Below are positions 525 through 30,560 of a stretch of DNA of 41,489 nt, piece by piece. Each line of letters begins with the position of its first letter. The first letter of the stretch is position 1. The notes below the pieces were generated by a model. It was not told the DNA's origin and did not search any database. It was given only the letters and a program-made list of their open reading frames with translations. Source of the stretch: Cytophagaceae bacterium (GTDB taxonomy: Bacteria > Bacteroidota > Bacteroidia > Cytophagales > Spirosomataceae); NCBI GenBank assembly GCA_024642485.1, contig JAHEAY010000005.1:1-41489 (forward strand), read 5' to 3'. The translations under genes were made by a program, and so were the position numbers.

Positions 525-1946
525 ATGAGTAAGAAAAAAGAAAAGAAAGCCCCAGTGGTGTTGGAACAAATCGCCATTTTGGATTTTGCCGCTGAGGCAA
601 AATGCATTGCCAAAGTGAACGATGAAGTAATTTTTGTGCAAGGTGCGGTGGCTCCGGGTGATATCGCCGACTTGCGTATTTTAAAGTCGAAGAAAAGCTT
701 TAAACAAGCGCAAGCAATTAATATTCAGCCACTTTCTAAACATCGTACCGAAGTTGCTTGTAGCCATTTTGGTATTTGCGGTGGTTGTAAATGGCAACAT
801 GTTTCTTATGAATCGCAAACGGCATTTAAGACCCAACAAGTTAAAGATAATTTGACGCGAATTGCGAAGGTGAAATTGCCCGAATTTCAACCCATTTTAG
901 GTTCTGAAGAGACATATTATTACCGAAATAAACTGGAATTTACATTTTCTTGTGCGCGATGGCTGACCGAAGATGAAATTGGAAAAGAAGATTTAGGCAA
1001 CATGAATGCCTTGGGATTCCATGTTCCTGGTCGTTTTGATAAGATTTTACCCGTAGATCATTGTTACCTGCAACCGGATCCATCGAATGCGATACGTAAT
1101 GGTGTGCGTGATTTTGCTAATGCGAATGGTATCTCATATTATGAATTGAAAAACCAACAAGAAGGTGCTTTGCGTAATTTGATTATTCGAAATACGGTTA
1201 CCGACGAATGGATGGTCACTGTTCAATTCGCCTATGCAACAGAGGAAGAAATTAAATTGGTCATGGAATATTTGAAATCGTCATTTCCTATGATTACGTC
1301 GCTAAACTATGTCATTAACCAAAAAGGGAACGATACTTTCCACGATTTAGAAGTTGTCTGCTACCATGGCAAACCATTCATGGTTGAAACGATGGAAGAT
1401 TTGAAATTTCAAATTGGCCCTAAATCCTTCTTCCAAACAAATGCCAAACAAGCCTTGAAATTATACCAGTTGGTGCGCGAATACGCCGACCTCCAAGGCA
1501 ATGAGGTTGTATATGATTTGTACACAGGAACGGGAACGATTGGTCTATTTCTTGCCAAACATGCGACAAAAGTCGTTGGTTTAGAATATGTGGAAATGGC
1601 CGTAGAAGATGCAAAAATTAATGCCGAATTAAATGGGATTACCAATGCAACTTTCTTTGCTGGCGATATGAAAAAGGTGTTAACAGAAGAATTCATCGCG
1701 ATTCATGGTGCACCGGATGTTATCATCACAGATCCTCCGCGTGCGGGAATGGATTTGGATGTAGTCAACCAAATCTTAGCTGTAAAACCGAAGAAAATCG
1801 TTTATGTAAGTTGTAATCCAGCTACGCAAGCGCGCGATTTAGCTTTATTGGATGTAGCCTATGAGGTGGATGTGGTACATCCGGTGGATATGTTCCCACA
1901 GACGCATCATGTGGAGAATATTGTTAGATTGAGAGTTAAGAACTAA
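525..1946 (+). CDS. rlmD: 23S rRNA (uracil-5-)-methyltransferase, RlmD/RumA family
   Basis: ORF 507..1946; the internal Met at 525 (MSKKKEKK) is the more likely start given the promoter. CSHFGICGGCKWQH FeS motif, YDLYTGTGTIGLFLA SAM motif, DPPRAGMD and VSCNPATQARDL. Confidence 0.88.
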   Translation: MSKKKEKKAPVVLEQIAILDFAAEAKCIAKVNDEVIFVQGAVAPGDIADLRILKSKKSFKQAQAINIQPLSKHRTEVACSHFGICGGCKWQHVSYESQTAFKTQQVKDNLTRIAKVKLPEFQPILGSEETYYYRNKLEFTFSCARWLTEDEIGKEDLGNMNALGFHVPGRFDKILPVDHCYLQPDPSNAIRNGVRDFANANGISYYELKNQQEGALRNLIIRNTVTDEWMVTVQFAYATEEEIKLVMEYLKSSFPMITSLNYVINQKGNDTFHDLEVVCYHGKPFMVETMEDLKFQIGPKSFFQTNAKQALKLYQLVREYADLQGNEVVYDLYTGTGTIGLFLAKHATKVVGLEYVEMAVEDAKINAELNGITNATFFAGDMKKVLTEEFIAIHGAPDVIITDPPRAGMDLDVVNQILAVKPKKIVYVSCNPATQARDLALLDVAYEVDVVHPVDMFPQTHHVENIVRLRVKN

Positions 1947-2035
1947 GAACTAAGAGTTAAGAACTATGAGTAAGTTTTGATAAATATATTTAGCCAATTC
2001 TTAACTCTTAATTCTTAACTCTTAACTCCCCACTC
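1932..2035. repeat. Paired heptameric tandem repeats forming an inverted repeat between rlmD and dnaB (copy R1)
   Basis: Left 1932-1973: AGAGTTA AGAACTA AGAACTA AGAGTTA AGAACTA TGAGTAA. Right 1994-2035: CCAATTC TTAACTC TTAATTC TTAACTC TTAACTC CCCACTC. Arms 1932-1963 and 1998-2029 are complementary at about 28/32 positions. Confidence 0.9.
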
Positions 2036-3636
2036 TAAAAAGGGCTATTCAACGGATCAAAATCCTGCTCCGGAGGTAAATTCATTTTACTTCCTTTGAA
2101 TACAGCATCTCCTCCACCCTGTTCAAAATTGGATGTTTGATCACCTAGATTACTTAAGTTAAAGCTTTCGCCTCCCTCAGCACCTCCAAACGGTTGGAAA
2201 TCCAAATCACAATATTTCGTGAATTTACCGATGAACTTCAACCACACGCTGTCCAATGAACCGGAACGGTTTTTGGCCATGATAATTTCTCCCATTCCCG
2301 CTAAGGAATTTCCGTTTTCGTCGGCTGTAATTTGGTAGTACTCTGGTCGGTAAATGAACATAACCTGATCGGCATCTTGCTCAATGGCTCCCGATTCACG
2401 AAGGTCAGATAACTGAGGTTTTTTGTTTCCTCCACGTGTTTCTGTCGAACGGTTCAACTGCGAAAGTGCGATTACCGGTACATCAAGTTCTTTGGCTAAT
2501 TGCTTCAAGGCACGTGAGATTTGTGCAATTTCTTGTTCACGGTTACCACTCGCTCCTTTGCCTCCATTATCTCCGGTCATCAACTGCAAGTAGTCAATGA
2601 CAATTAATTTAATGTCTTTTTGGGCTTTTAAACGTCGGCATTTCGCACGAAGTTCAAGAATAGATAAGGCAGGTGTATCATCAACGAAGATCGGAGCCTC
2701 ATATAAACGCTTGATTTTCGTATGTAATTGTTGCCACTCATGTGGTTCTAATTTTCCTTTACGAATCTTTTCTGCCTCAATTTCAGCTTCTGCTGAAATG
2801 ATACGATTGACCAATTGCACAGCACTCATCTCCAGCGAGAATAAGGCAACAGCATGGCCCCACTCAACGGCAGCGTTCCGACAAGCCGAAACGACAAAGG
2901 CCGTTTTACCCATACCGGGACGTGCTGCGATGATGATTAATTCTTGTTTTTGCCAACCTGATGTCAAACGATCCAAATCTGTGAAACCAGACGGAACTCC
3001 AGTCATACCACTTTTTTGTTGTTGCTTCTCCTCTAATTCCGCAACGGCTTTTAAGAGAATGTCTGACATACTTTCGTAGTTCTTACGAATATTGGATTCA
3101 GCGATCGTAAATAACTCCTGTTCCATGTGGTCCAAAATTTGGAACACATCCGTTGTATCTTCATACGATAAACGTTGGATTTCCGAGGAAACATGAATCA
3201 ATTGGCGTTTGATGTATTGCTCAATGATGATACGTGCATGAAATTCAACGTTTGAAGTTGAACTAACCCTCGATGTTAATTGAGCTAAATAAGCGGTCCC
3301 TCCTGCCTTTTCTAAATCTCCAGTGGACTTTAAATGGTTGTTAACCGTTAATAAGTCGACCGGTTGTGATTGCTGAAAAAGCGCCTGAATGGCACCGAAA
3401 ATTTTGGTATGAGCTTCCTTGTAAAAACTATCTGGTTTAAGTAATTCGATCACGTTCGCCAAAGGCTCCTTTTCAAGCATCAATGCACCTAACAAAGCTT
3501 CCTCTAAATCAACCGCTTGTGGAGGTAATTTGCCTAAACCTAAATCACTCAGCCGTTGTGGCATATTTGACCGATTTGAGCTATTAATCCCCTGTTTGCC
3601 CTTGTTGAAAGTTTGCGATGTGTTATTCGAATCCAT
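2035..3636 (-). CDS. dnaB: Replicative DNA helicase DnaB
   Basis: MPQRLSDLGLGKLPPQAVDLEEALLGALMLE N-domain; Walker A AARPGMGKTAF; VIDYLQLM; ALSQLNRS; DLRESGAIEQDAD. Likely start MDSNNTSQ at 3636; the ORF is open to 3696. Confidence 0.95.
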   Translation of the reverse strand: MDSNNTSQTFNKGKQGINSSNRSNMPQRLSDLGLGKLPPQAVDLEEALLGALMLEKEPLANVIELLKPDSFYKEAHTKIFGAIQALFQQSQPVDLLTVNNHLKSTGDLEKAGGTAYLAQLTSRVSSTSNVEFHARIIIEQYIKRQLIHVSSEIQRLSYEDTTDVFQILDHMEQELFTIAESNIRKNYESMSDILLKAVAELEEKQQQKSGMTGVPSGFTDLDRLTSGWQKQELIIIAARPGMGKTAFVVSACRNAAVEWGHAVALFSLEMSAVQLVNRIISAEAEIEAEKIRKGKLEPHEWQQLHTKIKRLYEAPIFVDDTPALSILELRAKCRRLKAQKDIKLIVIDYLQLMTGDNGGKGASGNREQEIAQISRALKQLAKELDVPVIALSQLNRSTETRGGNKKPQLSDLRESGAIEQDADQVMFIYRPEYYQITADENGNSLAGMGEIIMAKNRSGSLDSVWLKFIGKFTKYCDLDFQPFGGAEGGESFNLSNLGDQTSNFEQGGGDAVFKGSKMNLPPEQDFDPLNSPF

Positions 3637-3743
3637 AAGTACAATTTTACAATTTTTTATCAAAAATATCACCCTGTTGGTGAGATAAAATTTCAATCTT
3701 TCTCTATTTTAGTACTTTCATTCCACATTAAAATCTTGCCTAC

Positions 3744-5136: not shown

Positions 5137-6009
5137 ATGGCTATTAAAGCGATTGAGGCAGTATATCCTCCTGGTCCCGCACATTTTGTTGGGGATGGTT
5201 TTCGAGTACATAATTTTATACCGAGTCGACATGGTTTAGACATGCATCGCATGACTCCATTTATCATGATGGATTATGGTGCCAAATTTCATTTCCCTCC
5301 ATCTGATTCATTGAAAGGTGTAGGTGTACATCCGCATAGAGGATTTGAGACAGTCACGATTGCCTATAAAGGCCGCGTAGCACACCATGACAGTGCCGGT
5401 GGTGGTGGAGTCATTGGTGAAGGCGATGTCCAATGGATGACGGCGGCATCAGGTGTATTGCACAAAGAATATCACGAAGAGTCGTTCAGTAAAACGGGTG
5501 GTGATTTTCAAATGGTGCAATTGTGGGTGAATTTACCTGCCAAAGATAAAATGTCGGCACCCAAATACCAGGCAATTGAAAATGCTAGCATTCCTAAAGT
5601 GCCTGTTGAAAATGGTTATGTGGAGGTCATTGCTGGTGAATTTCAAGGTACTAAAGGCAAAGCTTCAACTTTCACTCCGGTGCATCTATTTAACGCACAT
5701 TTGCAATCAGGAGCTAAGGCAGAATTTTCCTTCCCTGCATCTTATAATACTTGTTTAATCGTTGTAGAAGGAGAAATTCGAATCAATGATGCTGATGAAC
5801 TTGTGCCTGTAGATCATTTTGTGCTCTTCGAAAATGAAGGCGAAACCTTTCACATCGAAGCAACTGAGCATTCCAAAATATTAATCCTGAGCGGCGAACC
5901 TATTCGCGAACCGATTGCTTCACATGGGCCTTTTGTGATGAATACCCGACAAGAAATCATGCAAGCGTTTCATGATTTTGAGGCTGGAAAATTTGGAACA
6001 CTTAACTAA
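5137..6009 (+). CDS. Pirin family protein
   Basis: HRMTPFIMMDYG, HPHRGFETVTIAYKGRVAHHDSAGGGGVIGEGDVQWMTAASGVLHKEYH: pirin cupin signature. Confidence 0.93.
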   Translation: MAIKAIEAVYPPGPAHFVGDGFRVHNFIPSRHGLDMHRMTPFIMMDYGAKFHFPPSDSLKGVGVHPHRGFETVTIAYKGRVAHHDSAGGGGVIGEGDVQWMTAASGVLHKEYHEESFSKTGGDFQMVQLWVNLPAKDKMSAPKYQAIENASIPKVPVENGYVEVIAGEFQGTKGKASTFTPVHLFNAHLQSGAKAEFSFPASYNTCLIVVEGEIRINDADELVPVDHFVLFENEGETFHIEATEHSKILILSGEPIREPIASHGPFVMNTRQEIMQAFHDFEAGKFGTLN

Positions 6010-6145
6010 GAGGTAAGAGTGAAGAACTAAGAGGTTGGTGGTAAATTTAGCTATTAATATAAATTCTAAAGCATAAAAAAGAGGTAAAAGATTGGCTGTC
6101 AAACAACCAAACTTTTACCTCTTAATTCTTATCTCTTACCTCTTA
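6007..6145. repeat. Paired heptameric tandem repeats forming an inverted repeat between pirin and ssb (copy R2)
   Basis: Left from 6008: AAGAGGT AAGAGTG AAGAACT AAGAGGT. Right from 6115: TTACCTC TTAATTC TTATCTC TTACCTC TTA. The outer ends are the two stop codons. Confidence 0.88.
6075..6123 (-). terminator. Hairpin plus U-tract, likely ssb terminator
   Basis: Reverse strand AAGAGGTAAAAGTTTGG-loop-CCAATCTTTTACCTCTT followed by TTTTAT; 16/17 bp stem (6079-6095 with 6107-6123). Confidence 0.7.
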
Positions 6146-6553
6146 AAAAGGTAAATCATCCCCACTCTCCGCCGCTAATGGAGGAAAGTTGTTTGCAGGA
6201 GCTGCACTTGTAGCAGCAGCTGCTGGAGCTGAAGGTGCCCATCCAGCATTATCTTGAGCTGGTGAAGGCGCAGACGCACCAGAACGATCTAAACGGTAGG
6301 CACGAATCTCTGTGTACCAGCGCTCATTATATTCTCTTGATTCCACATTGAATTGCACTTTCACGATTTCACCTTCTTGGATAGGTGCTAAATCTTGGGT
6401 CTTATCGCCCCATACCGACATGCAAACTTTTTTAGGATATTGATCTTGTGTCTCTAAAACAAACTCTTGTTTGATCCAGTTTGTTCCGTTTCTGCCTGTT
6501 CCCGTAACCTCAGACATTTTCTTAATAAGTTTTCCGCTTAGTTCTAAAGCCAT
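6143..6553 (-). CDS. ssb: Single-stranded DNA-binding protein
   Basis: ALELSGKLIKKMSEVTGTGRNGTNWIKQEFVLETQDQYPKKVCMSVWGDK, Ala/Pro-rich linker, acidic tip GDDLPF. True start is ATG 6553; the longer ORF runs antisense through a tRNA. Confidence 0.85.
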   Translation of the reverse strand: MALELSGKLIKKMSEVTGTGRNGTNWIKQEFVLETQDQYPKKVCMSVWGDKTQDLAPIQEGEIVKVQFNVESREYNERWYTEIRAYRLDRSGASAPSPAQDNAGWAPSAPAAAATSAAPANNFPPLAAESGDDLPF

Positions 6554-6624: not shown

Positions 6625-6708
6625 GGCGATGTGGTGAAATTGGTAGACACGCTACTTTGAGGTGGTAGTGCCGCTTTAGGTATGGGAGTTCGAATCTCCC
6701 CATCGTCA
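6625..6708 (+). tRNA. tRNA-Leu(GAG)
   Basis: Acceptor GGCGATG/CATCGTC, D-arm TGGTGAAATTGGTAGACAC, anticodon arm CTACT-TTGAGGT-GGTAG with GAG at 6659-6661, variable arm, T-arm GGGAGTTCGAATCTCCC; CCA not encoded. Confidence 0.95.
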
Positions 6709-6735
6709 CGAAATTTTTTGTTTAATCTGTAAATC

Positions 6736-28992: not shown

Positions 28993-30315
28993 ATGAAAAA
29001 GGTTGCTTTTTATACACTCGGTTGTAAGTTGAATTTTGCTGAATCAAGCTCCATCGCACGGTCTTTAGAACCTGTTGGTTTTGTACGTGCGGAATTTCAA
29101 GATAGTCCTGATTTATTTGTAATCAATACATGTAGTGTTACTGAACAAGCGGATAAGAAATGTAAAAAAGTAGTTCGTGAAGCAAAAAAAATCAATCCAG
29201 CGGCTGCCGTAGTCATCATTGGTTGTTATGCACAATTGAAGCCCGAAGAAATTGCTGCAATTCCTGGGGTGGATTTGGTACTTGGGGCAAATGAAAAATT
29301 TCAGTTGCCGGAATTGATTCTCCCCTATCTCGACAATACTGTTCAGGACTTACCCAAATTAATTGCCTCTGAAATTCGATATGATTTAGATTATCATGCT
29401 TCTTACAGTGTAAATGATCGTACAAGGACATTTTTGAAGGTTCAAGACGGCTGTGATTACCCTTGCTCCTATTGTACGATTCCATTAGCTCGAGGACAAT
29501 CTCGTTCGGATTCAATTGCGAAAGTATTAGGGCTGATTGAGGAAATTGCGGCGAATGGAGTAAAAGAAATCGTATTAACAGGTGTTAATATTGGAGATTT
29601 TGGAATCCAACAAGGTAAGCGTGTAGAAACATTTTTTGATTTGGTTCAAGCCATTGAGGAAAAGTCTTCGATTGAACGTTTTCGTATCTCGAGTATTGAG
29701 CCCAATTTATTGACGCCTGAAATGATTTCATTTTTGGCTACTTCTAAGCGCTTTGTTCCACATTTTCATATTCCTTTGCAATCTGGGTCAAATTCAGTGT
29801 TACGTTTGATGAAGCGTAGATATCAACGAGAGTTATACCAAGATCGGGTTGCTCTGATTCGTTCCGTTATGCCAAATGCATGTATTGGAGTGGATGTTAT
29901 TGTTGGGCATCCGGGCGAAACACCTGAATTATTTTTGGAAACCTATCAGTTTTTGACTGAACTTGATATTTCATACTTACACGTTTTTCCTTATTCAGAA
30001 CGCGCGAATACCTATGCTGTCGACATAAAACCGAAAGTTGATGGTATGCAAAAGGCTGAACGCTCTAAGATGCTTCACATTTTGTCTGATAAAAAGCGTC
30101 ATTCCTACTATGAAAGTCAATTGGGAAATACTGGACTTGTGTTGTTTGAGGAGTCATCTGAAAATGGCCAAATGGAAGGTTTCTCAGAGAATTATGTGCG
30201 TGTTTCTGTTCCATATGATCCATTGTTGATCAATACGATTCAGCCTGTCCGTTATAAATCATTGACTGAATCTGGTGATGTAAAGGGGGAAGTGATGTTA
30301 GTCGTCAGTCGCTAG
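28993..30315 (+). CDS. mtaB: tRNA (N6-L-threonylcarbamoyladenosine(37)-C2)-methylthiotransferase MtaB
   Basis: YTLGCKLNFAESSSI, DLFVINTCSVTEQADKKCKK, VVIIGCYAQLKPEEI, radical SAM VQDGCDYPCSYCTIPLARGQSRS, PLQSGSNSVLRLMKRRY. Confidence 0.94.
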   Translation: MKKVAFYTLGCKLNFAESSSIARSLEPVGFVRAEFQDSPDLFVINTCSVTEQADKKCKKVVREAKKINPAAAVVIIGCYAQLKPEEIAAIPGVDLVLGANEKFQLPELILPYLDNTVQDLPKLIASEIRYDLDYHASYSVNDRTRTFLKVQDGCDYPCSYCTIPLARGQSRSDSIAKVLGLIEEIAANGVKEIVLTGVNIGDFGIQQGKRVETFFDLVQAIEEKSSIERFRISSIEPNLLTPEMISFLATSKRFVPHFHIPLQSGSNSVLRLMKRRYQRELYQDRVALIRSVMPNACIGVDVIVGHPGETPELFLETYQFLTELDISYLHVFPYSERANTYAVDIKPKVDGMQKAERSKMLHILSDKKRHSYYESQLGNTGLVLFEESSENGQMEGFSENYVRVSVPYDPLLINTIQPVRYKSLTESGDVKGEVMLVVSR

Positions 30316-30355
30316 TCGCTAGTCGTTAGTAATTAGTCCGAAGTCCGGAGTTTAT
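30307..30355. repeat. Left heptameric tandem array at mtaB 3' end (copy R3, left)
   Basis: AGTCGCT AGTCGCT AGTCGTT AGTAATT AGTCCGA AGTCCGG AGTTTAT. Confidence 0.85.
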
Positions 30356-30511: not shown

Positions 30512-30560
30512 ACTCTTCACTCTTCACTCTTCACTCTCAGCTAACGTCTAACGTCCATCA
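30512..30560. repeat. Right heptameric tandem array before amt terminator (copy R3, right)
   Basis: ACTCTTC ACTCTTC ACTCTTC ACTCTCA GCTAACG TCTAACG TCCATCA. Confidence 0.85.

What the first reader, a model, noticed from the sequence alone, without database searches (positions are those of the whole stretch)
6007..6145. R2: inverted repeat whose two outermost trinucleotides are the stop codons of pirin and ssb
The left arm begins TAAGAGGTAAGAG with pirin's TAA (6007-6009). The right arm, read on the reverse strand, begins TAAGAGGTAAGAG with the ssb TAA (6145-6143). The two convergent genes therefore end on identical, oppositely oriented 13-mers, and the repeat fills the gap precisely. This suggests the element formed at, or was selected to sit exactly at, stop codons.
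Basis: seen in the sequence. Interest (0 to 1): 0.62.

Follow-up and report, generated by a model that had tools for sequence, protein, structure and literature searches.

The report
Stop-codon-headed heptamer repeats at gene ends
The inverted repeat between these two genes is a pair of short arrays of a 7-base unit that itself begins with a stop codon; related freshwater bacteria carry many such arrays right at gene ends and can swap one unit type, stop codon included, for another, so gene ends here are rewritten quickly up to the last codon.

Summary
Observation confirmed: both arms start on the genes' TAA stops; 26 of 29 outer bases pair (shuffles: at most 19). The genome is an Aquirufa MAG (Cytophagales). 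Each arm is a sense-oriented tandem array of the heptamer KAAGARN (TAAGAGG TAAGAGT...), one per convergent gene, around a conserved inner hairpin. The genus holds many such arrays, nearly all intergenic, with 7 nearly the only tandem period. Six unit families all carry a stop codon. Near gene ends 109 arrays run sense and 3 antisense; 62 of 109 are in phase with the gene's stop. At orthologous gene ends the protein ends at the same codon, yet the family can switch, and the stop with it (TAA with TAAGAGN, TAG with TAGACGT). Isolates without heptamers keep pirin's stop position, so the repeat did not move it. Best reading: slippage-prone 3'-end arrays, replaced by recombination, that run up to the stop because it is the edge of coding constraint and each unit can supply a new stop. 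The inverted repeat follows from convergent gene order. Terminator or fail-safe-stop roles are possible but unproven. New variant of a known kind (bacterial intergenic heptamer arrays).

The parts
5137..6009 (+). pirin gene; its stop TAA (6007-6009) is the first trinucleotide of the left array
   Evidence: ORF; Pfam Pirin and Pirin_C
6007..6034 (+). left heptamer array, 4 units: TAAGAGG TAAGAGT GAAGAAC TAAGAGG, sense to pirin
6079..6123 (.). inner inverted repeat (21-nt arms, 3-nt loop); the best-conserved part in four sister species; candidate bidirectional terminator
   Evidence: weak terminator-like site on the minus strand at 6110-6092
6111..6145 (-). right heptamer array, 5 units: TAAGAGG TAAGAGA TAAGAAT TAAGAGG TAAAAGT, sense to the DUF3127 gene
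1930..1971 (+). second example: array overlapping the last codons of the RNA methyltransferase gene 507-1946
1997..2038 (-). array at the stop of dnaB (2035-3696, minus), pairing with 1930-1971
30297..30330 (+). TAGTCRC-family array containing the stop (TAG, ending at 30315) of a radical SAM gene

Best explanation
R2 is two independent, sense-oriented 3'-end arrays of a heptamer whose unit carries a stop codon, one at each of two convergent genes, on either side of a conserved inner hairpin. SHOWN: such arrays occur at many gene ends in this genus, in several unit families, sense to the upstream gene, starting at or close to the stop, often with the stop as their first unit. Between sister species an array at the same gene end can be replaced by another family together with the stop codon, while the protein end stays put. 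INFERRED: arrays grow and shrink by 7-nt slippage and are overwritten by recombination with other arrays or cassettes in the genome. They reach exactly to the stop because codons upstream are under purifying selection while everything from the stop onward is free to change, and because each unit carries a stop, so an array that overwrites the old stop supplies a new one (in all three frames within about 21 nt, as 7 is not a multiple of 3). The inverted repeat follows from convergent orientation. INFERRED, weaker: the inner hairpin is a bidirectional terminator, and the paired arms add a long stem to readthrough RNA.
For: 197 three-unit matches against 5 for the reversed control in the genome. 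Period 7 (and its multiple 14) is nearly the only tandem period, almost all intergenic. 24 of 33 KAAGARN arrays start within 14 nt of a sense stop, 10 exactly on it. Anchoring exceeds random placement: 18 against 7.7 in G000, 12 against 5.6 in G023. 109 sense to 3 antisense; 62 of 109 in phase; TAG stops with TAG-bearing families 29/33. Sense strand of anchored arrays twice the background in stops. Family and stop switch together at orthologous ends with unchanged protein ends; at C226e the array's first in-frame TAA serves as stop two residues later. TAA to TGA compensation at unit junctions. Similar arrays at stops in other Bacteroidota.
Against: Arrays that start a few bases after the stop are also all sense, which coding constraint alone does not explain. 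Anchoring is weak in G013 (P=0.067) and not seen in G016 (6 arrays). Recombination and slippage are inferred from species comparisons; no strain-level events were seen. Arrays in related species are not independent samples, and some contigs were chosen because they hold arrays.
Confidence: 0.55

Rival explanations
1. Fail-safe stop ladder: arrays are kept because they place stops in all three frames just after the gene's stop, catching readthrough or frameshifted ribosomes.
For: Array gene ends have a further stop in all three frames within 30 nt in 26 of 59 cases against 28 of 413 other ends. All families carry a stop in the sense unit. TAA to TGA compensation.
Against: Only a minority of gene ends carry arrays (25 of 356 in the own sample). 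A broad study found no selection for additional stops in eubacteria (PMC6764699). Extra stops follow automatically from any stop-bearing heptamer. Does not explain why the period is always 7.
Confidence: 0.15
2. Transcript-end element: the inverted arms and inner hairpin are selected as a bidirectional terminator or 3'-end stabiliser.
For: Very strong predicted folding of the junction in all ten species compared (z -4 to -13), with different sequences; inner hairpin conserved. Arrays avoid divergent gaps.
Against: Terminator-like hairpins are equally frequent at gene ends with and without arrays (9/59 and 63/413). Many arrays are single, without an inverted partner. Hairpins in general show no preference for starting at the stop.
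Confidence: 0.15
3. Mobile cassette: array plus palindrome (for example TAGACGT units followed by GTAGAGACGCGATACTTCGCGTCT) moves as a unit and inserts or is converted at gene ends.
For: The TAGACGT array recurs together with that palindrome at several unrelated gene ends and replaces KAAGARN arrays in sisters.
Against: KAAGARN arrays have no constant partner; no target duplication or transposase was looked for or seen; occupied sites are shared between species more than chance, which favours replacement in place over fresh insertion.
Confidence: 0.1
4. Coincidence: the repeat happens to touch the two stops.
For: Pirin's stop position is the same in sister genomes without the repeat.
Against: Genus-wide stop association, orientation and phase and recurrence in other Bacteroidota.
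Confidence: 0.02

Closest known systems
GGGAATC heptamer arrays of Xanthomonas and GGGGA(C/T)T arrays of Nostoc (Rehm et al. 2015, PMC4692102)
   Same: Period 7, intergenic, rare between divergent genes, close to or overlapping the stop on the coding strand, and in Xanthomonas often in convergent inverted pairs.
   Different: Those units are G-rich, proposed to form quadruplexes, and hold no stop codon; here the units carry a stop, several families coexist, and family and stop codon switch together.
TAACTGA heptamer arrays of marine Beggiatoaceae, cyanobacteria and some Bacteroidetes (MacGregor 2015, PMC4679880)
   Same: Period 7, intergenic, unit with a stop in all three frames; some overlap the end of an upstream gene by up to 18 nt.
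   Different: Most lie just upstream of start codons; unit sequence differs; no family switching at orthologous gene ends is described in the parts read.
Intrinsic bidirectional terminators in convergent gaps
   Same: Inverted repeat in a convergent gap just after both stops.
   Different: Those are GC-rich hairpins with T-tracts; here the outer arms are AT-rich tandem arrays with the stops inside. Only the inner hairpin resembles a terminator.
Fail-safe additional stop codons
   Same: Further stops downstream of the gene's stop.
   Different: Known from some eukaryotes and reported absent as a selected trait in eubacteria (PMC6764699); here the extra stops come with a tandem array.

Membership tests
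Bacterial intergenic heptamer tandem arrays (general kind) | tandem units of 7 nt, mostly intergenic, many loci per genome | tested here: met
TAACTGA arrays (MacGregor 2015) | unit TAACTGA | tested here: not met
   units are KAAGARN, TAGACGT and others
TAACTGA arrays (MacGregor 2015) | location mainly just upstream of start codons | tested here: not met
   few arrays near starts (4/371 in G000); anchored at stops
GGGAATC / GGGGAYT arrays (Rehm 2015) | G-rich unit able to form quadruplexes | tested here: not met
   no G3 tract in the unit consensus
GGGAATC / GGGGAYT arrays (Rehm 2015) | near the stop on the coding strand; convergent pairs | tested here: met
Intrinsic terminator | GC-rich hairpin followed by a T-tract | tested here: inconclusive
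   one weak site on the minus strand within the inner hairpin; termination itself cannot be tested here
REP or MITE | palindromic element linked to a transposase, with target-site duplication | not tested
   no search for a linked transposase or target duplication was made
Rfam RNA family | covariance-model match above the gathering score | tested here: not met
   only sub-threshold chance hits

The most novel reading that the evidence does not exclude
Stop codons themselves seed the arrays: an active, strand-specific process with a fixed 7-nt step (tied to transcription or translation termination, or to a 7-nt polymerase contact) copies the stop plus four bases downstream. That would explain why all families, in several genera, have stop-bearing units, run sense and start at the stop.
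Probability: 0.12. Interest if true: 0.85.

Novelty: new variant of a known kind. Interest (0 to 1): 0.6.

Why it matters
Intergenic heptamer arrays have been noted in several phyla without an agreed origin or role. Here stop codon, orientation, phase and family replacement are linked at orthologous gene ends. That makes two open questions testable by comparing strains: how heptamer arrays arise and spread, and whether bacteria can rewrite gene ends, stop codon included, without touching the protein. It also warns that stop-codon switches and small C-terminal differences in such genomes may reflect repeat turnover rather than selection on the stop itself.

Tried and rejected
(1) That stops in general sit at the foot of a hairpin in this genus: hairpin edges show no peak at the stop over 759 gene ends. 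(2) Known RNA family: nothing above threshold. (3) That arrays replace or accompany canonical terminators: same frequency with and without arrays. (4) Antisense-strand Rho loading by C-rich, G-free reverse complements (ACTCTTA): fits the TAAGAGN and TAGAGAG families but not TAGACGT or TAGTCRC, so not general (reasoning). (5) A first three-unit pattern with wrong spacing gave no match. (6) G035 stretches overlapped few own genes (15 orthologs); a query made of 17 joined gene ends solved this. (8) Literature searches for the palindrome or for Aquirufa repeats found nothing relevant.

Full report
WHAT IS THERE. The gap between pirin (stop TAA 6007-6009) and the convergent gene (stop TAA 6145-6143) is 133 nt without the stops. 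Its outer 29 bases on each side pair at 26 positions, which no shuffle reaches. The convergent gene is a DUF3127 protein with an SSB-like acidic tip, not a Pfam SSB hit. Both arms are tandem arrays of a heptamer, K-A-A-G-A-R-N, read in the sense direction of their own gene; a second inverted repeat lies inside at 6079-6123.

THE GENOME. The window is contig C236 of a 2.5-Mb, 238-contig genome. Its relatives include Aquirufa isolates (Cytophagales); the genus name rests on those record titles. Three-unit KAAGARN matches number 197 against 5 for the reversed pattern. In samples of about 350-460 kb from four genomes, 7 (with its multiple 14) is nearly the only tandem period between 4 and 15, and nearly all arrays are intergenic. 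Other unit families share these genomes: TAGACGT/TGGACGT, TAGTCRC, TAAAGMA, TAGAGAG, TRAATGG.

STOP ASSOCIATION. Of 33 KAAGARN arrays in the own sample, 24 start within 14 nt of the stop of the upstream sense gene and 10 start exactly on it; none ends within 50 nt of an opposing stop. One pair of these (contigs C61 and C156) appears to be the same sequence twice. With all families and random placement in the same gaps, 18 anchored arrays were seen against 7.7 expected in G000 (P=0.001), 12 against 5.6 in G023 (P=0.006), 18 against 12.9 in G013 (P=0.067), and no excess in G016 with 6 arrays. Only 2 of 41 arrays in G000 lie between divergent genes. By family patterns over six genomes there were 109 sense and 3 antisense arrays near stops, with 62 of 109 in phase with the gene's stop. 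The stop type follows the family: TAG in 29 of 33 gene ends with TAGACGT or TAGTCRC units, against about 24% TAG overall. In-phase placement is forced for arrays that overlap the coding end, so phase is not independent evidence there; orientation of the remaining arrays is (47:3). Arrays in related species are not independent.

ORTHOLOGOUS GENE ENDS. At the pirin junction four close species have KAAGARN arrays that start at the same stop position (TAA in three, TGA in G023). G003 has TAGAGAG/TAAAGAG arrays that start at TAG stops on both sides. Five others (G025, G033, G016, G005, G021) have no heptamers there, but TAG at the same codon and short palindromes. Over 17 array-bearing genes compared with three sisters, the protein end was unchanged in nearly all. 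Families switched at dnaB, C17:8269, C31:19128, C36:3865 and C226e. At C31:19128 the stop is TAG with TAGACGT in G000 and G023, but TAA with KAAGARN arrays in G035 and G011. At C226e, G000 and G035 end two residues later than G011 and G023, at the first in-frame TAA of their array. The methyltransferase at 507-1946 ends inside its array in G000 and G035 but not in G023. In G013 the same gene ends often carry TAAAGMA arrays. Site sharing between species exceeds chance (G000/G023 p=0.001, G000/G013 p=0.0006; weaker when only probable transcription-unit ends are used, p=0.015 and 0.04).

UNIT CONTENT. In stop-anchored arrays the sense strand holds 0.12-0.13 stops per nt, twice the background, and the antisense strand fewer (0.016-0.077 in the four genomes with enough arrays). 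At KAAGARN junctions, loss of the T of TAA goes with a T just before it, giving TGA (67/78 against 79/151; counted by arrays p=1.4e-4). Units spread by duplication, so this suggests rather than proves selection for a stop.

BEYOND THE GENUS. In loci from other Bacteroidota, stop-anchored sense heptamer arrays recur (L336, L338, L340, L341, L342, L345, L347, L111). Most of these loci were found by unit patterns, so they show recurrence, not frequency.

STRUCTURE. Predicted RNA folding of the gap is strong in all ten junctions (z -4 to -13), including a 34-bp stem in G003. In R2 the inner hairpin is the best-conserved part. Hairpins in general do not start preferentially at stops, terminator-like hairpins are no commoner at array ends, and Rfam has no match.

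INTERPRETATION. I read R2 as two 3'-end arrays made inverted by convergent gene order. Being able to supply a stop lets an array replace everything from the stop onward, so its edge coincides with the stop. Slippage and recombination between arrays are inferred. Terminator, fail-safe-stop and mobile-cassette readings remain open; the broad negative result on fail-safe stops in bacteria (PMC6764699) counts against the second.

COMPARISON. Xanthomonas GGGAATC arrays (PMC4692102) are nearest in placement and pairing. TAACTGA arrays (PMC4679880) are nearest in carrying stops, but sit mostly at starts. The combination seen here, several families with the stop in the unit, in phase, and switching with the gene's stop, I did not find described in the open-access papers searched.

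Noticed in passing
window 6143-6553 (-): The gene called ssb is DUF3127 (PF11325) with an SSB-like C-terminal tip GDDLPF; if the tip works as in SSB, the exact stop position would matter for function.
   Followed up: partly
window 1929-2038: A second convergent junction of the same build (RNA methyltransferase / dnaB); the methyltransferase's last codons and stop lie inside the array in G000 and G035.
   Followed up: yes
window 30297-30330 and 30512-30539: TAGTCRC-type array containing the stop of a radical SAM gene, with a KAAGARN array in the same gap.
   Followed up: partly
G000, G011 and G023 gene ends (L194-L205, L305-L334): Palindrome GTAGAGACGCGATACTTCGCGTCT with a T-run recurs just after TAGACGT arrays at unrelated genes; looks like an array-plus-hairpin cassette.
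   Followed up: partly
L028 (G005), pirin-DUF3127 gap: The 283-nt gap holds several tandem copies of a longer unit with CCCTTGC(A)ACGCAAGGG palindromes instead of heptamers.
   Followed up: no
L305-L334, G035 contigs: Runs of N in the G035 assembly fall inside heptamer arrays, so draft genomes under-count them.
   Followed up: no
window 6625-6709 (+): tRNA-Leu (gag) lies just upstream of the DUF3127 gene on the opposite strand.
   Followed up: no
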